Shown piece after piece: positions 4,519 to 32,285 of a stretch of DNA of 32,285 bases (position 1 is the stretch's first letter; each line of letters starts with the position of its first letter). A model generated the notes under the pieces. That model was given only the letters and a program-made list of their open reading frames with translations. It searched no databases and was not told the DNA's origin. The stretch spans positions 7,824,322 through 7,856,606 of the forward strand of contig NZ_CM002285.1 in assembly GCF_000497445.1 (NCBI RefSeq), read 5' to 3'. The translations under genes were made by a program, and so were the position numbers. The stretch comes from Streptomyces roseochromogenus subsp. oscitans DS 12.976 (lineage in GTDB: Bacteria > Actinomycetota > Actinomycetes > Streptomycetales > Streptomycetaceae).

Positions 4519-5790
<1,272 letters not shown>

Positions 5791-26415: not shown

Positions 26416-27072
26416 GTGATCTTCCGCGGCGGGGGGTCGGGTGGGCGGGCAATCCCCTGGCGGGCGTCGACCGTATACAGAGGTGTGTCGGGTTTCCGGT
26501 TCCCCGTGGGCCGCCTCCCGGACGAGGCTCTGCTGTCCGGGCTGGCCACAGGTGATCCGGAACTCGCGGTCGTCTTCGTACGAAGGTTCCAGCACCGGGT
26601 CTTCGGGGTCGCCATGGCCGTCACCGGGGATGAACAACTCGCCGAGGATGTCGCCCAGTTGACCTTCGAGCGGGCGTGGCGTCATGCCCAGATCTACGAC
26701 TCGCGCCGCGGCTCGGTCACCACCTGGCTGACGACCATCGCACACAACCTCGCCGTCGACGCCGTCCGCGCCCGGCGGACCGAGCCGGTGGCACCGGAAG
26801 ACCTCGACGCTCTCCTCGGCGTGGTCACCGAGACCCCCGAGCGGTGGGCGCTGGCCGACGAGACCTCCTCCCAGCTGCGGGCCGCCGTGGCCCGGCTGCC
26901 CCGCGAACAGGCCCGGGCCCTGGTGATGGCGGGCATCTACGGCATGACCGCCCAGCAGATCGCCGACGCGGAGCAGATTCCGCTGGGCACCGCCAAGACC
27001 CGGATCAGGGCCGCCATGGCGAAACTGCGGACCACATTCGCGGCTCCGAAGCGAGGCGACCATGTCCAGTGA
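26416..27072 (+). CDS. ECF-type RNA polymerase sigma factor
   Basis: A 218-residue sigma factor with only the two core regions. Region 2 runs from about residue 45 to 120 (VTGDEQLAEDVAQLTFERAW, then GSVTTWLTTIAHNLAVDAVR), and region 4 from about 155 to 210 (LPREQARALVMAGIYGMTAQ, then IPLGTAKTRIRAAMAKLR). GTG 26416 is a tentative start; the first 35 residues are Gly/Arg-rich, and an internal GTG cannot be excluded. It overlaps the anti-sigma gene by 11 bases, so the pair is cotranslated. The exact ECF group and target promoters cannot be told from this sequence. Confidence 0.92.
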   Translation: MIFRGGGSGGRAIPWRASTVYRGVSGFRFPVGRLPDEALLSGLATGDPELAVVFVRRFQHRVFGVAMAVTGDEQLAEDVAQLTFERAWRHAQIYDSRRGSVTTWLTTIAHNLAVDAVRARRTEPVAPEDLDALLGVVTETPERWALADETSSQLRAAVARLPREQARALVMAGIYGMTAQQIADAEQIPLGTAKTRIRAAMAKLRTTFAAPKRGDHVQ

Positions 27073-27826
27073 CATGAAATGCGACAAGCTCCGGGAGATC
27101 GCCGCCGAGCTGGCACTGGGCGTGCTGAACGGCCGGGAGCGCGCCGAGGCAGTCGCCCATCTGGACCGGTGCGCGGACTGCCGGGAGTACGTCCGCCAAC
27201 TCACCCTGGTCGGCGACCGGCTGATCGGCCTGCTGCCGGACAGCGAGCCACCGCTCGGCTTCGAGACCCGGGTGGCGCGCACGCTGGCCCAGCAGGCATC
27301 GGCGTCCGAGGCTCCCACGGGCGTCTCCGGCCGTACGTCGCCAAGCCTCCGCGGGCGGGCGCGGCGAGCCCGGCTGCGCCTGGCGGCCGTCGCCACCGCG
27401 GTCACCGTGGCCATCGGGCTCGCCGGCTGGGGGATCGGCACCGCCGTCGAGCAGGTCCTCGCCTCGTCCGCGCCCGCCACCGCGTCCGAGCCCATGCTGA
27501 TCGGGGACATGACCTCGGCCCCGAGCGGCGGCACCGTCGGCGAGGTCTACGCCCACCCCGGAACCCCCGGCTGGATCTTCGTGTCCGTCGATCTCGCCGG
27601 CCCGCACGCCGCGTACACCGGCAAGGTCACCTGCCTCCTCGAACACGCCGACGGTACGACCGTGCGCGTCGGCGACTTCACCCTGACCGGCGGACACGGC
27701 GAGTGGGGCGTGGCCGCACCCGGCGACCTCTCGACCCTCTCCGGCGCCCGGCTGACGGCGCCCGACGGCACGGTCCTCGCCACGGCCCACCTGGCGAAGG
27801 GCCGGGTCGTGGAGCCGGTGCAGTGA
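27062..27826 (+). CDS. Membrane zinc-finger anti-sigma factor
   Basis: A 254-residue inhibitor of the sigma factor encoded just upstream. Residues 1-60 are a ZAS domain with AHLDRCADC, that is His33-x3-Cys37-x2-Cys40. One membrane helix (RLAAVATAVTVAIGLAGWGI, residues about 102-125) follows. The outer C-terminal part of about 125 residues is an RskA-like beta domain (GWIFVSVDLAGPHAAYTGKV ... LTAPDGTVLATAHL). Release of sigma would come by a signal at the cell surface or by loss of zinc. It converges on the kinase gene with 33 bases between stops. Confidence 0.92.
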   Translation: MSSDMKCDKLREIAAELALGVLNGRERAEAVAHLDRCADCREYVRQLTLVGDRLIGLLPDSEPPLGFETRVARTLAQQASASEAPTGVSGRTSPSLRGRARRARLRLAAVATAVTVAIGLAGWGIGTAVEQVLASSAPATASEPMLIGDMTSAPSGGTVGEVYAHPGTPGWIFVSVDLAGPHAAYTGKVTCLLEHADGTTVRVGDFTLTGGHGEWGVAAPGDLSTLSGARLTAPDGTVLATAHLAKGRVVEPVQ

Positions 27827-27830
27827 ACCG

Positions 27831-27861
27831 GAGCCGGATACGGCCCGGCCTGGTACGGCTC
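27831..27861. terminator. Possible bidirectional hairpin between convergent genes
   Basis: GAGCCG (27831-27836) pairs with CGGCTC (27856-27861), and GGCCCGGCC (27842-27850) in the loop is itself a palindrome. It sits between the anti-sigma gene and the kinase gene and touches the kinase stop. There is no T-run. Confidence 0.35.
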
Positions 27862-28795
27862 AGGAGCGCTGCGGCAGGGTCGCTTCCAGGGCCGCGGCCA
27901 GCTCGGCGACCGTGGGCCGCGCCGCCGGGTCGGCCCGCAGACAGGCGTCGACGGCGGCGGCGAGCGCGGGCGGCAGCCGCCTCCGGGACGCGATGGGCGG
28001 GGCCGCCTTCTCTGCCTGCGGATACCGGTCCTTCATCCGCGGATGCCGGTCGTCCGTCTGTGGACACCGGTCGTTCGCCTGCGAGGAGGAGCCGCCCATG
28101 CCCTCGCCGCCCTCGTCGGACTCCGCTCCGGTCGCGCCGCAGTCGAAAGGCACGTCACCGCACGCGACCTCGTACAACGTGACGCCGATGCCCCACACGT
28201 CGGCGGCGGCCGTGAGCGGATCGCCCCGGGCCTGCTCCGGAGCGAGGTAGCAGCACGTGCCCAGCCCGGCGGGCGCCGGTCCGGGCGGCCGGGCGACGCT
28301 CAGGTCCAGCACCTTGGCATGCCCGCGCTCCACCACCACGTTGGCCGGTTTGAGGTCCAGGTGCAGCAGACCCCGGCCGTGCAGATAGTGGACCGCCGAA
28401 CACAACTGCACGCCGAGGAGCGCCACATCGGTAGCCGCCGGCCGGCGCCGCAGCCGGTGCACGAGGTGGGACAGCGTCTCACCGGTCAGTGTCTCCAGGA
28501 TCACGAGCGGCTCGGGCGACGTGACGGTCTCGTACCCACGGACCAGGTGCGGATGGCTGAACTCCTGCAGCAACCGGCCCTCCCGCAGCAGCCGCTCGCC
28601 GAGCTGCCCCTCGCCCCGCCGGTCCGGTCGCACCACCTTGATCACGCACCGGCAGGCCCGTTCCGCACTCCACGCGTCGTACACATCGAGCCAGCCCGTG
28701 CGGGTCAGATGCCCGAGGATCTCGTACCCTCGCGCCGGCTCCGCGCCCGGCGCGAGGGGCGCGGGGCCGTTCCCGCCCGCCACCGCGGCGCTCAT
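27860..28795 (-). CDS. Soluble serine/threonine protein kinase linked to an ABC exporter
   Basis: A 311-residue Hanks-type kinase with catalytic residues in place: VIKVV (Lys53), a helix-C Glu near 72, HLDLKPANVVV (Asp147, Lys149, Asn152), VLDLSVARP (Asp164, with DLS instead of DFG) and CYLAPEQARGD. The Gly-rich loop is poor (LGHLTRTGWLDVYDAW). There is no membrane helix or sensor domain, unlike PknB types. A Ser/Asp/Pro insert (220-268) before the last lobe carries three 7-residue repeats. Its ATG 28795 overlaps the ABC transporter stop (ATGA), so it is cotranslated with the exporter. It may phosphorylate the exporter or the His-rich peptide (inference). Confidence 0.88.
   Translation of the reverse strand: MSAAVAGGNGPAPLAPGAEPARGYEILGHLTRTGWLDVYDAWSAERACRCVIKVVRPDRRGEGQLGERLLREGRLLQEFSHPHLVRGYETVTSPEPLVILETLTGETLSHLVHRLRRRPAATDVALLGVQLCSAVHYLHGRGLLHLDLKPANVVVERGHAKVLDLSVARPPGPAPAGLGTCCYLAPEQARGDPLTAAADVWGIGVTLYEVACGDVPFDCGATGAESDEGGEGMGGSSSQANDRCPQTDDRHPRMKDRYPQAEKAAPPIASRRRLPPALAAAVDACLRADPAARPTVAELAAALEATLPQRS
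28020..28082 (-). repeat. Three 21-base tandem repeats in the kinase gene
   Basis: Imperfect units 28020-28040, 28041-28061 and 28062-28082 share GGAT/CxCCGGTC. They keep the frame and encode ANDRCPQ, TDDRHPR and MKDRYPQ, a (D)DRxPx unit three times in the insert before the kinase C-lobe. Confidence 0.85.
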
Positions 28796-30606
28796 GACGG
28801 CACCGCGCCCATGCTCAGCCGGTGCAGCCGGGCGTACGTGCCCTGGCCGCGGAGCAGGTCGTCGTGGGCGCCGTCTTCCACGACCCGGCCGTGGTCCAGC
28901 ACCACGATCCGCGTGGCATCGCGCACGGTCAGCAGGTTGTGGGAGATGACGACGGTCGTCCGCCCGGCCATGAGCCGGCGCAGCGGGTCCATGATCCGCC
29001 GGCCCGACCGCACGTCCAGCCCCGTGGTCGGCTCGTCCAGCAGCAGCACGGGCGCGTCCCTGATCATCGCGCGGGCGATCGCCAGCCGCTGGCACTGCCC
29101 GCCGGACAGGGTCCGGCCGCGCTGCCCGACCAGCGTGTCGTAGCCCTCCGGGAGCCGCTCGATGAACTCGTGGGCGTCCGCCGCGCGCGCCGCCGCGACG
29201 ATGTCCGCCTCGCTCGCCCCCGGCCGCCCGTAGGCGATGTTCTCGCGTACCGTGCCGTGGAAGACGAGGGTCTCCTGCAGCACCACCGCGATGTTCTCCC
29301 GTACGTCGCACAGCCTCAGGTCCCGCAGATCGGTGCCGCCGAGCAGGACCGCGCCGCGCTCGGGGTCGTAGAAGCGCAACTGGAGTCTGGCGGCCGTGGA
29401 CTTGCCGGCCCCGCTCGCCCCGACCAGCGCCAGGGTCTCCCCGGGCGCGACATGGAACGACACGTCCGACAGCGCCCAGGAGGATGCGCCGGGGTAGCGG
29501 AACCAGACCCCGTCGAACTCCACCTCGCCCCGCGCCCGGCCGATCCGCCGGGCGCCCGGAGCCTCGACGACCTGCGGCCGCTGGTCCAGCAACTCGATGA
29601 TCCGTTCGGCGGAGGCGGAGGCGGCGTAGAAGGTGGTGCCGAGCCCGGAGAGGCCGTGGACCGGGCCGTACAGCTTGCCGATGAGCGCCAGGAAGACCAG
29701 CAGACCGCCCAGCGTGAGCTGTCCCCGGGCCAGTTGCCAGGTGCCGAGGCCCAGCACCGCGAGGCCGCCGGTCACCTCGATGATCTCGACGACGGGCCCG
29801 TAGACGGCGCGGATCCGGGCCGAGGCCATCGCCGCCCGGAACCTGCCCGCGTTCTCCCGCTCGAACCGGCGCTCCTCCCACTCCTGCCGGTTGTACGCCT
29901 GCACCAGCGCGACATTGCCGAGCACCTCCTCGGCGATCGCGCTGAGCGAGCCGCTGCGGCGCCTGCGCTCCCGCGACGCCGTTTTGAGCAGCCGCGCGAA
30001 GTGCCGCGCGGCAGCCCAGAACAGCGGCACGATCACGAGGGCCAGTAGGGTCAGGTCCCAGCGCAGATAGAACAACAGGCCCAGGAAGAAACCCAGTTGG
30101 ACGACGTAGTAGAGGACATCCGCCACTCCCGAGAGCAGAAACGTCTCGACCGCGTCGACGTCCCCCGTGATGCGGGACAGCACGTCCCCGAGCCGCCGGC
30201 GTTCGAAGAAGCCGAGCGACAGCCCCTGGACATGCCGGAACACCTCGGAGCGCAGCGAGAGCAGAAAGCTCTCGCCGACCCAGGTGGACGTCACCTCGTC
30301 GGCGAACCCGAGCACCCCGGAGCAGACGATGAGTCCCGCGTAGGCCGGTGCGATCCACAGCAGCGGCCGCAGGTCGCGGGGGACGAGCACGCCGTCCACG
30401 ACGGTCTTGAAGAGCCAGATCTCCGCGGCGTCGACGGCCGGTCCGGCCAGGCTGAAGAGCAGAACGGGGACGAGCCAGCGGCGGCCGCCGCGCGTGTACG
30501 GCCAGAACCGCCGGAACACCGCACGCGGCGAGACGGCGGGCGCGGCCGCGACGACGCCGTCGGAGGCCTCGCCCACCGAGAGCAGACGCCGCAGGACGTG
30601 CACCAT
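28792..30606 (-). CDS. ABC exporter half-transporter (membrane plus ATPase)
   Basis: A 604-residue fused exporter. Residues about 40-335 hold six membrane helices, including LVPVLLFSLAGPAVDAAEIW, GLIVCSGVLGF, VLYYVVQLGFFLGLLFY and LTLLALVIVPLFWAA. The ATPase follows with Walker A GASGAGKST (396-404), the signature TLSGGQCQR, Walker B VLLLDEPTTG and the H-loop VISHN. There is no C39 peptidase domain, so it would not trim a leader peptide. It should work as a homodimer because no second half is nearby. GAGGAA stands upstream of ATG 30606. It lies 75 bases after the His-rich peptide gene and overlaps the kinase gene. The substrate is unknown. Confidence 0.95.
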   Translation of the reverse strand: MVHVLRRLLSVGEASDGVVAAAPAVSPRAVFRRFWPYTRGGRRWLVPVLLFSLAGPAVDAAEIWLFKTVVDGVLVPRDLRPLLWIAPAYAGLIVCSGVLGFADEVTSTWVGESFLLSLRSEVFRHVQGLSLGFFERRRLGDVLSRITGDVDAVETFLLSGVADVLYYVVQLGFFLGLLFYLRWDLTLLALVIVPLFWAAARHFARLLKTASRERRRRSGSLSAIAEEVLGNVALVQAYNRQEWEERRFERENAGRFRAAMASARIRAVYGPVVEIIEVTGGLAVLGLGTWQLARGQLTLGGLLVFLALIGKLYGPVHGLSGLGTTFYAASASAERIIELLDQRPQVVEAPGARRIGRARGEVEFDGVWFRYPGASSWALSDVSFHVAPGETLALVGASGAGKSTAARLQLRFYDPERGAVLLGGTDLRDLRLCDVRENIAVVLQETLVFHGTVRENIAYGRPGASEADIVAAARAADAHEFIERLPEGYDTLVGQRGRTLSGGQCQRLAIARAMIRDAPVLLLDEPTTGLDVRSGRRIMDPLRRLMAGRTTVVISHNLLTVRDATRIVVLDHGRVVEDGAHDDLLRGQGTYARLHRLSMGAVPS

Positions 30607-30681
30607 GGGACGCGTTCCTCGGGGGCCGGCGGAGCGGACCGGGTCCTCCGGTCACCGGTCCGCTCAGCCCTGATGTGCGAT

Positions 30682-30855
30682 TCAGAAGTCATCGCGGCCG
30701 TGGCGGTCGCCGTGGTCGTGGCGGTCGCCGTGGTCGTGATCGTGGCGGTGCCCGTGCCGGTGGCCGTGGTCACTGTGGTCGCCGTGGTCGTGATGCGACG
30801 TGTGCCTCCGGTGGTCATGGCGGCTGGCCGGCACAAGACTGACGAAGATAGCCAT
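30682..30855 (-). CDS. 57-residue histidine/aspartate-rich peptide
   Basis: The peptide begins MAIFVSLVPASR, a short nonpolar lead, and then turns into runs of HDH, HGH, GDRHDH and GDRHGR up to a final DDF. Seventeen of 57 residues are His, and Asp, Gly and Arg make up most of the rest; there is no Cys. GGAGG lies six bases before ATG 30855, as good a ribosome site as any in the window, which argues that it is a real gene in spite of its simple sequence. Such peptides bind Zn, Ni, Co or Cu. It is too short for a standard Sec signal. It leads the group peptide-ABC exporter-kinase. I do not recognise a named family. Confidence 0.75.
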   Translation of the reverse strand: MAIFVSLVPASRHDHRRHTSHHDHGDHSDHGHRHGHRHDHDHGDRHDHGDRHGRDDF

Positions 30856-30876
30856 TCCGTTCCTCCCGAAACTTGC

Positions 30877-30905
30877 TGTATATGGGATACGTCCCGGAGC
30901 GGAAA
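30877..30905 (-). promoter_or_regulatory. Possible promoter of the His-rich peptide operon
   Basis: On the minus strand TTTCCG (30905-30900), 17 bases and TATACA (30882-30877) form a modest promoter starting about 15 bases before the peptide start. The spacer contains GGGA-N4-TCCC (30884-30895), an inverted repeat well placed for a repressor or a metal sensor. Confidence 0.4.
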
Positions 30906-30933
30906 CGGGATGGCTCTCCGGCGAAAAAAGCCG

Positions 30934-31002: not shown

Positions 31003-31806
31003 TCAGCCCAGCCTCGCCGCCAGCCCCCCGGTGCACCGCACCTCGTCGCCCGCGGTGATCAGCAGGCCCTCCACGTCCGGCAGGGACTCCAGCCAGGCCA
31101 GCCCCGCCCGCGAGCCCATCGCGAACGCCGCCGTGGCCCAGCAGTCCACCCATGTCAGCCGCGGCCCCACCACCGTCACGGCGACCAGATCCGTCACCGC
31201 CGACTTCCCCGTCCGCGGATCCACGATGTGCGCACCCCGCTCGGCCGTACCCGAGGTCGCCACCGACAGCTCGGACACCCCCGCCGCCGAGATCACCGCC
31301 GCCAGCCCGCCCGGCCGGAGCGGATCGGCCACCCCCACCCGCCACGGCCGCTGCTGCTCCGGCGAACCGAGCAACTGGACGTCCCCGCCCCCGTTGACGC
31401 TCACCCCGCACACCCCGGCCACCCCCGCCAGCAGCCGCGCCGCCCGCTCGGCGGCCCAGCCCTTGACGATGCCGGTGGGATCCAGCGAGCCCCGATAGCG
31501 GCTGCTGAACCAGCCCTCGCTCACCCGCTCCGCCTCCGCCGCGAGCTCCAGCACCTCGGCCACCTCGGGCGCGCACCGGTCCACGGCCAACTCGCCCCGC
31601 GCCAGCCGCGACACCTCGCTGTCCTCGCGGTAGGTGCTGAAGACCGCGTCCGCCGCGTGCAGACCCGCGACCGCCTCGGCCAGGGACTCGCGCACCGCAC
31701 GGGGTTCCCCGCCGCGGACGTCGAAGGAGAAGACCGTCCCCATGACCTCCTCCGCATGACGCACCGCGGCGGGAGCTTCGGCCGGCTCGGCCACCGTGTC
31801 AGCCAC
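31003..31806 (-). CDS. apbE: FAD:protein FMN transferase
   Basis: A 267-residue enzyme that splits FAD and joins FMN to a threonine of a target protein. EEVMGTVFSFDV (the MGT motif), DAVFSTYREDSEVSRL, DPTGIVKGWAAERAA, VNGGGDVQLLG and TSGTAERGAHIVDPRTGK are family signatures, and the metal-binding DxxxT/S part TWVDCWATAAFAMG is present. No lipoprotein signal is seen, so it works in the cytoplasm or is moved with its target. Start GTG 31806 overlaps the upstream gene stop by eight bases. ATG 31743, after GGAGGAGG, is an alternative but would remove residues before MGT. Its target should be the FMN-binding protein next to it. Confidence 0.94.
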   Translation of the reverse strand: MADTVAEPAEAPAAVRHAEEVMGTVFSFDVRGGEPRAVRESLAEAVAGLHAADAVFSTYREDSEVSRLARGELAVDRCAPEVAEVLELAAEAERVSEGWFSSRYRGSLDPTGIVKGWAAERAARLLAGVAGVCGVSVNGGGDVQLLGSPEQQRPWRVGVADPLRPGGLAAVISAAGVSELSVATSGTAERGAHIVDPRTGKSAVTDLVAVTVVGPRLTWVDCWATAAFAMGSRAGLAWLESLPDVEGLLITAGDEVRCTGGLAARLG

Positions 31807-32285
31807 CGGCCTGGTCCAGCGCCGACTGCAGGGACTGCCGGTAGCCGGTGCTGGTGTAGGTGGCGCCGGAGACGGCGTCGATGTGCGCGCTGCCGGCCGC
31901 TACGGCCTCCTGGTTGAGCTTGGGGACGGCCATCGCGGTCTTCTGGTCGCTGAGTCCGCCCTTGGGCGCCTGGACGGCCTCCGCCTTGGTGATCTTGCCG
32001 GCGCTGACCGTGATCCGTACCTGGACCGGGCCGTACTGGGTCTGCGCGACCTGCCCGGTCACCGTACGAGCCTGAGCAGAACCGGACGACGAGGAGCCAC
32101 CGGAGGAGGAGCCGCCGGAGGAAGACCCCGGGGAAGCCTTCATCCTGTCCAGCGCCGACTGCAGCGACTTCTTGTAGCCGTTGCTCGTGTACGTCGCCCC
32201 GGACACCGCGTCGATCTGCGCGCTCTGCGGCGCTACGGCCTCCTGGTTGAGCTTGGGGACGGCCATCGCGGTCTTCTGGTCGCTG
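31799..32285 (-). CDS. Tandem FMN-binding domain protein (5' part outside window)
   Basis: The last 161 codons of a flavoprotein; the front lies beyond the window end. Two FMN-binding domains are seen, each ending in DAVSGATYTS, where the Thr of SGAT (codons near 32194 and 31861) is the site at which ApbE links FMN. A Ser/Gly linker (PGSSSGGSSSGGSSSSGSAQ) joins them. The repeat period is 111 residues. Such proteins carry electrons across or outside the membrane, usually with a membrane ferric-reductase-like partner. It is followed by apbE with an 8-base overlap (GTGGCTGA). Confidence 0.92.
   Translation of the reverse strand, partial: SDQKTAMAVPKLNQEAVAPQSAQIDAVSGATYTSNGYKKSLQSALDRMKASPGSSSGGSSSGGSSSSGSAQARTVTGQVAQTQYGPVQVRITVSAGKITKAEAVQAPKGGLSDQKTAMAVPKLNQEAVAAGSAHIDAVSGATYTSTGYRQSLQSALDQAGG
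31899..31952. repeat. 54-base direct repeat, copy 1
   Basis: Identical base for base to 32232-32285, 333 bases away. It encodes the LSDQKTAMAVPKLNQEAVA part of the second FMN-binding domain. Confidence 0.95.
32232..32285. repeat. 54-base direct repeat, copy 2 (runs to the window edge)
   Basis: Identical to 31899-31952 and cut by the window end, so the identity may go further. It encodes the same part of the first FMN-binding domain. Exact DNA identity points to recent duplication or gene conversion. Confidence 0.95.

What the first reader, a model, noticed from the sequence alone, without database searches (positions are those of the whole stretch)
27860..30855. His/Asp-rich mini-peptide, ABC exporter and soluble kinase as one compact unit
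Seen: a 57-residue peptide with 17 His and a near-perfect ribosome site, 75 bases later a fused ABC exporter without peptidase domain, then a membrane-free Ser/Thr kinase overlapping the exporter stop by ATGA. Known: His-rich peptides bind Zn, Ni, Co or Cu; exporter plus modifying enzyme plus small peptide is the layout of many secreted-peptide systems, and the peptide has Ser/Thr at 6, 11, 19, 20 and 28. Inference: either a metal-handling export system with a peptide chaperone, or an exported metal-binding peptide whose traffic is set by phosphorylation. I know of no described system with exactly this set.
Basis: partly seen in the sequence, partly recalled or inferred. Interest (0 to 1): 0.8.

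Follow-up and report, generated by a model that had tools for sequence, protein, structure and literature searches.

The report
Exported low-complexity peptide with dedicated kinase
A small bacterial peptide, the pump that probably exports it and a kinase that probably phosphorylates its tail form one unit seen in Streptomyces and in a few distant Gram-positive bacteria, which would be a new way for bacteria to make secreted phosphopeptides.

Summary
In detail: the 57-residue His/Asp peptide, the exporter and the soluble Ser/Thr kinase lie as described. The peptide is a real family: a short ORF with a hydrophobic start (mostly MAIFxxLxPA) and a fast-changing low-complexity tail lies upstream of 79 of 80 related exporters; Bacillota relatives have Ser-rich tails. 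The key finding is co-variation of kinase and tail: 71 of 71 loci with an intact kinase have at least 2 tail Ser/Thr; 23 of 26 without have at most 1. On the exporter tree 9-10 of 12 independent contrasts agree, none oppose (p 0.002-0.004); other cut-offs are weaker. So the kinase most likely phosphorylates the tail. Kinase-less loci keep peptide and exporter, so export probably does not need phosphorylation. His-richness is not universal; a metal role is at best clade-level. A neighbouring ECF sigma/anti-sigma pair shares a promoter motif with the peptide. Closest known: LPP linear phosphopeptides, with HprK-type kinase, RRE and leader peptidase. Export, phosphorylation and sigma control are inferred.

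The parts
30682..30855 (-). Precursor peptide, 57 aa: hydrophobic start MAIFVSLVPA, then His/Asp-rich tail with Ser11, Thr19, Ser20, Ser28
   Evidence: family; codon variation in leader
28792..30606 (-). MsbA-like fused ABC exporter, 604 aa, no peptidase domain
27860..28795 (-). Soluble Hanks-type Ser/Thr kinase, 311 aa, ATGA overlap with exporter stop; K53, E72, H145, D147, K149, N152, D164 kept in 54 of 54 kinases aligned
30887..30913 (-). Promoter-like site CCATCC-N16-CGTAT upstream of the peptide
30862..30867 (-). Ribosome binding site GGGAGG of the peptide ORF
30607..30681 (-). Peptide-exporter gap with predicted stem-loop (possible expression step between peptide and exporter)
   Evidence: -36.1 kcal/mol in the window; mean z -2.3 over 65 loci against mononucleotide shuffles
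26416..27072 (+). ECF sigma factor (SigK-like); the promoter-like site lies inside the 5' end of the listed ORF, so the true start is further in
27062..27826 (+). Anti-sigma factor with zf-HC2-like N-terminus (Pfam match just under cut-off)
26450..26476 (+). Promoter-like site CAATCC-N16-CGTAT upstream of the sigma factor, same motif as at the peptide

Best explanation
The unit makes an exported phosphopeptide. An anti-sigma factor holds a dedicated ECF sigma factor; on an envelope signal the sigma factor transcribes its own operon and the peptide-exporter-kinase operon (inferred from a shared promoter motif and co-location). The peptide is probably made in excess because of the stem-loop behind its gene (inferred). 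The soluble kinase phosphorylates Ser/Thr in the low-complexity tail (inferred from co-variation; active site intact). The MsbA-like exporter takes the peptide out by its short hydrophobic start, F-x-x-[IL]-x-P, without cutting it itself (inferred). Outside, the tail acts as a charged, metal- or wall-binding polyelectrolyte; in this clade phosphate, His and Asp together could bind divalent metals (speculative). Phosphorylation tunes the product and is not needed for export.
For:: 71 of 71 kinase-intact loci have >=2 tail Ser/Thr, 23 of 26 kinase-less have <2; 12 independent contrasts, 9-10 same way, 0 opposite, p 0.002-0.004; His, Gly, Asp, Arg (coded above/below median) not significant at the median pairing; exporter Ser/Thr alike (0.105 vs 0.106). 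The idea came from the first set (53 and 23 loci); the 20 new loci all fit (17 of 17, 3 of 3). Ser/Thr doublets in 61 of 65 kinase-intact actinobacterial tails vs 2 of 26 without kinase. Six Bacillota loci, all with kinase, have Ser-rich tails, (SSA)n in three. Catalytic residues kept in 54 of 54 kinases, fold nearest PknB. In 295 Streptomyces genomes (kinase E <= 1e-60) the 28 with the kinase also have the exporter: 26 are listed; in G077 and G191 it lies beside the kinase (a 65% relative and a fragment cut by the locus end). Promoter-like site upstream of 69 of 80 peptides and 60 of 62 sigma genes, shuffles about 0.3; 5 sites in the whole genome, 2 of them these. Sigma pair in 61 of 80 loci in three arrangements.
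Against: No export or phosphorylation was shown. Three kinase-less loci (L074, L083, L096) keep 3 tail Ser/Thr; two with broken kinases (L038, L055) keep 2 and 5. Counting broken kinases as absent gives 5 exceptions of 28 (p 0.002-0.008). With cut-offs of 1 or 3 Ser/Thr p is 0.06 and 0.03, or 0.03 and 0.016 with broken kinases as absent; never an opposite pair. Without tree correction Gly, Asp, Lys and Tyr of the tail also differ between the groups, and leader Ser/Thr go the other way. A kinase acting in trans is not excluded. The sigma pair was not found in 19 of 80 loci (flank limits included), L116 among them. The peptide of L166 was picked by eye and lacks the common leader. The exporter could serve another substrate.
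Confidence: 0.7

Rival explanations
1. Metal handling: the His/Asp peptide is a metal chaperone or exported metallophore, the exporter removes metal-peptide complexes, and the kinase only regulates the exporter.
For: 17 His and 11 Asp of 57 residues; many members of the window's clade are His/Asp-rich.
Against: His is 0-33% across 70 members; Arg-, Lys/Thr-, Gly/Tyr- and Ser-rich tails go with the same type of exporter. Regulation of the exporter alone does not predict that tail Ser/Thr disappear with the kinase. Neighbours of the relatives were not annotated for metal genes, so context is untested.
Confidence: 0.15
2. Signalling kinase: it phosphorylates other proteins in an envelope response, and the peptide is an extracellular signal. 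Tail Ser/Thr track the kinase because both mark an older form of the system.
For: Hanks kinases usually signal (general knowledge); ECF sigma pair nearby.
Against: 10 and 13 changes of kinase state on the two trees with no opposite contrast do not fit one shared ancestral form; at E 1e-60 the kinase was not seen apart from the exporter in 295 genomes.
Confidence: 0.1
3. Secreted antimicrobial or membrane-active peptide (hydrophobic start, cationic tail in some clades), with the kinase neutralising it before export.
For: Poly-Arg or Lys tails in some members; tandem copies in Bacillota.
Against: Window and Bacillota tails are not strongly cationic; kinase-less producers exist.
Confidence: 0.05

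Closest known systems
LPP linear phosphorylated peptides of Bacillota (PMC13381572; passages found by term)
   Same: Ribosomal peptide, dedicated kinase, MsbA-like transporter; the product is a linear peptide with phosphates
   Different: LPP uses an HprK-like kinase, a discrete RRE, an SpI-type leader peptidase and an NTP transferase, and phosphates are put on one Ser. Here a Hanks-type kinase, no such genes inside the unit, several possible Ser/Thr in a low-complexity tail
Phosphorylated lasso peptides (paeninodin, pseudomycoidin; PMC9266682, passages)
   Same: A kinase acts on the precursor peptide
   Different: C-terminal Ser is the site and lasso genes are required; none in this unit
Class III/IV lanthipeptide synthetases (LanKC, LanL)
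   Same: Contain a kinase domain acting on precursor Ser/Thr (general knowledge); the NCBIfam LanL model matches the kinase at 80.7 bits
   Different: Far below the 650-bit cut-off and below the PknB match (111.3 bits); no lyase or cyclase domain found; few Cys in the peptides
SigK-RskA ECF systems of Mycobacterium (PMC7509140, passages)
   Same: ECF sigma with anti-sigma partner, autoregulated
   Different: No Cys in this sigma ORF; here linked to a peptide-exporter-kinase operon
Peptidase-containing bacteriocin exporters (general knowledge)
   Same: Fused ABC exporter beside a small peptide gene
   Different: No C39 peptidase domain, no double-glycine leader

Membership tests
LPP linear phosphopeptide RiPP (HprK type) | HprK-like kinase | tested here: not met
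   Kinase is Pfam Pkinase, nearest PknB by profile and fold
LPP linear phosphopeptide RiPP (HprK type) | RRE and SpI-type leader peptidase | tested here: inconclusive
   No room for them inside 27860-30855; neighbours were not scanned for RRE or peptidase
LPP linear phosphopeptide RiPP (HprK type) | MsbA-like transporter | tested here: met
   Best NCBIfam match MsbA_lipidA 466.6 bits, under its 602-bit equivalog cut-off; ABC_membrane + ABC_tran
LPP linear phosphopeptide RiPP (HprK type) | Linear peptide carrying phosphate | not testable with these tools
   Needs mass spectrometry; only co-variation supports it
Class III/IV lanthipeptide | Lyase and cyclase domains with the kinase | tested here: not met
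   311 aa, kinase domain only
Class III/IV lanthipeptide | Cys in the core peptide | tested here: not met
   0 Cys in the window peptide; 8 of 70 relatives have one
Peptidase-containing bacteriocin exporter | C39 peptidase domain | tested here: not met
Hanks-type Ser/Thr kinase | Catalytic Lys, Glu, HxD, Asn and Mg-binding Asp | tested here: met
   54 of 54 kinases; DL[S/G/N] in place of DFG; HLD in place of HRD in the window kinase
ECF sigma with anti-sigma | Sigma regions 2 and 4; zf-HC2 anti-sigma | tested here: met
   Sigma70_r2 and Sigma70_r4_2 above cut-off; zf-HC2 20.2 bits, just under its 22.2 cut-off; NCBIfam antisigma 59.6 bits, under its cut-off of 100
SigK-RskA (ECF18/19) | Conserved Cys pair in sigma | tested here: not met
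   No Cys in the translated ORF; per the paper the pair is kept in 94% of ECF18 and 56% of ECF19
Metal-handling export system | Metal-binding residues kept across the family | tested here: not met
   His 0-33%; at most one His in the Bacillota peptides shown

The most novel reading that the evidence does not exclude
A new class of ribosomal peptide systems: MsbA-like exporters secrete disordered, low-complexity polyelectrolyte peptides with a short F-x-x-[IL]-x-P start, and plug-in enzymes decorate the tail. Here a Hanks-type kinase phosphorylates several Ser/Thr; in relatives a flavin monooxygenase goes with Trp-rich tails, or no enzyme goes with Gly/Tyr, His/Asp or Pro/Lys tails. It is shared by two phyla and, in Streptomyces, run by its own ECF sigma factor.
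Probability: 0.45. Interest if true: 0.9.

Novelty: new variant of a known kind. Interest (0 to 1): 0.78.

Why it matters
It would give bacterial Hanks kinases a role as dedicated tailoring enzymes of secreted peptides and reveal a family of exported phosphopeptides that the protein search lists mostly as hypothetical proteins. The co-variation makes the enzyme-substrate pair directly testable, with natural kinase-less relatives as controls, and the few sites of the ECF promoter motif in the genome give a clean entry to the inducing signal.

Tried and rejected
Metal handling as the shared function: rejected because His varies from 0 to 33% and does not track the kinase. ApbE and FMN-binding genes as parts of the unit: rejected; found in 33 and 32 of 80 loci, all inside one 38-row clade of the tree. 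A wider sigma regulon: 5 sites in the genome, reversed-pattern control 1. Of the three further sites one lies upstream of a likely secreted protein (L184), one upstream of an ORF that reads like a Fem-type ligase (L182, name recalled), one inside a reading frame (L183); not followed up. Paper searches listed no description of this set of parts; I saw listings, and passages of three papers; the library holds open-licence papers only.

Sampling limits: L081 (kinase side beyond the contig) and L040 (no clean peptide) were left out of counts; L038 and L055 (partial kinases) stand apart and were left out. L148, with a kinase remnant only, counts as kinase-less and as partial. The 20 replicate loci are those whose exporter was not contained in the first set, less L165 (contig end) and the own-genome paralogues L167-L169; Streptomyces ones had to pass E 1e-190, so G077 and G191 are not among them. 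In Bacillota loci with two peptides the copy next to the exporter was counted. Peptides of L041, L094, L095, L103, L105, L107, L112-L114 and of L160-L164 and L166 were chosen by eye among upstream ORFs.
Full report
Observation. Pfam gives ABC_membrane and ABC_tran for the exporter, Pkinase for the kinase, nothing for the peptide.

Family. One scan of genome contigs with the exporter kept the best 80 of 140 relatives: mostly Streptomyces and close kin, a few further Actinomycetes and one Jeotgalicoccus. Upstream of 79 of 80 lies a short ORF: 70 by a leader pattern, nine more by eye; L040 has no clean one. Among 69 pattern-found actinobacterial members Pro9 (demanded by the pattern) uses four codons; Phe4 is kept in 63, Leu7 in 67, Ala10 in 61. 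After residue 10 the sequence is low-complexity: His/Asp/Gly-rich in the window's clade, Arg-, Lys/Thr- or Gly/Tyr-rich elsewhere. A profile search found 45 proteins, none with a Pfam domain, nearly all the named ones 'hypothetical protein'.

Second phylum. In Jeotgalicoccus and five of its family the exporter (74-83% to L116) is followed by the kinase (65-73%) and preceded by one or two small ORFs such as MSYFEDIQPAASNDFSSDSFSSASSASSASSASSVSSD. At E 1e-140 the exporter is in 6 of 33 genomes of that family and in the same 6 of 157 of the order. In the class of the window it is in 5 of 296 genomes at E 1e-175, the window's own included.

Kinase and tail. In the first set (76 loci with a clear state) all 53 with an intact kinase have at least 2 tail Ser/Thr; 20 of 23 without have 0 or 1. 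Without tree correction Gly, Asp, Lys and Tyr also differ between the groups, His and Arg do not, and leader Ser/Thr are higher without kinase. New loci were then collected: 42 of 392 Streptomyces genomes have the exporter at E 1e-190. After removal of loci already seen, 14 Streptomyces, 5 Bacillota and 1 other actinobacterial locus remained; all 20 fit. Total: 71 of 71 and 23 of 26. On an exporter tree of 101 rows kinase state changes 13 times; of 12 independent pairs on well-supported branches 9 or 10 agree, 0 oppose, 2 or 3 do not differ (p 0.002-0.004). Without Bacillota and L112-L114: 7 or 8 of 10 agree, 0 oppose (p 0.008-0.016). His, Gly, Asp and Arg, coded above or below the median, are not significant at the median pairing, though single pairings of Gly reach 0.03. 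With broken kinases left out p is 0.004-0.008, counted as absent 0.002-0.008; cut-offs of 1 or 3 Ser/Thr give medians of 0.06 and 0.03, or 0.03 and 0.016. The trees are quick searches with long branches at the base.

Kinase. All 54 kinases aligned keep the catalytic residues. The model (mean pLDDT 80.8) is closest to PknB. At E 1e-60 the kinase was not seen without the exporter among 295 genomes; in G071 the two lie on different contigs.

Control. C[AC/A variants]ATC[CT]-N14-18-CGTA lies upstream of 69 of 80 peptides (79 loci and the window), in 68 with exactly 16 bases between, and upstream of 60 of 62 sigma genes; block shuffles gave 0.26 and 0.36 on average. The 11 without it are L052, L093, L116, L094, L095, L103, L105, L107, L112, L113, L114. 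The stricter CMATCC-N16-CGTAT occurs 5 times in the 9.78 Mb genome, reversed control 1; two are the sigma and peptide sites. The sigma pair lies in 61 of 80 loci, convergent, co-directional or upstream divergent. That M. tuberculosis SigK uses a CCATCC-like -35 is recalled, not from a call.

Expression step. The peptide-exporter gap folds more stably than mononucleotide shuffles (mean z -2.3 over 65 loci, z below -1.5 in 71%); in L116 it holds a long stem followed by T residues.

Wider picture. Two paralogous exporters of the same genome also have small ORFs upstream, Pro/Lys- and Lys/His-rich, and no kinase was found there. The Pro/Lys type was found in 9 of 11 loci of that exporter, own locus L170 included; L174 and L180 lack it. 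That exporter was in 7 of 61 genomes at E 1e-200. Its leaders (MSFHKIAPV, MSFKKLAPL) resemble those above. The leaders of L041, L094, L095, L103, L105, L107, L112-L114 and L166 do not fit the common pattern.

What is shown and what is inferred. Shown: gene layout, family, co-variation, intact active-site residues, shared promoter motif. Inferred: phosphorylation of the tail, export by this exporter, sigma control. Speculative: metal or wall binding outside.

Noticed in passing
L112 7103-8479, L113 6830-8059, L114 7085-8404: Three kinase-less relatives with Trp-rich peptides have an FAD_binding_3 gene downstream of the exporter: perhaps another tail-modifying enzyme. One clade only.
   Followed up: partly
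L167 about 1824-1955; L178: Pro/Lys-rich small ORFs with MSFKKLAP- or MSFHKIVP-like starts upstream of a paralogous exporter type; three in tandem in L178.
   Followed up: partly
L168 about 1988-2110: Lys/His-rich small ORF upstream of a third exporter; at E 1e-200 that exporter was found in 1 of 61 genomes, the window's own.
   Followed up: no
L094, L095, L103, L105, L107: Kitasatospora-like loci carry Gly/Tyr/Asp-rich tails and no kinase.
   Followed up: partly
window 27860-28795: Cys48 near the catalytic Lys is invariant in 16 aligned kinases, Cys50 nearly so; role unknown.
   Followed up: no
L040 about 4730-4925: Peptide region without an ATG start and with a broken tail frame, next to a partial kinase: the system seems to be decaying there.
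   Followed up: partly
window 31003-32266 and L158 6602-10000: ApbE and FMN-binding genes, and further up, by reading only, a second FMN-binding-like protein and two ferric-reductase-like flavoproteins, all on the same strand as the unit; not a constant neighbour.
   Followed up: partly
L182, L184 (own genome C1:4773235 and C1:5302007): Two further sites of the promoter motif lie upstream of an ORF that reads like a Fem-type ligase and of a likely secreted protein: possible further targets of the sigma factor.
   Followed up: no
P0038: A member of the peptide family carries the UniRef name 50S ribosomal protein L35, probably a misnomer.
   Followed up: no
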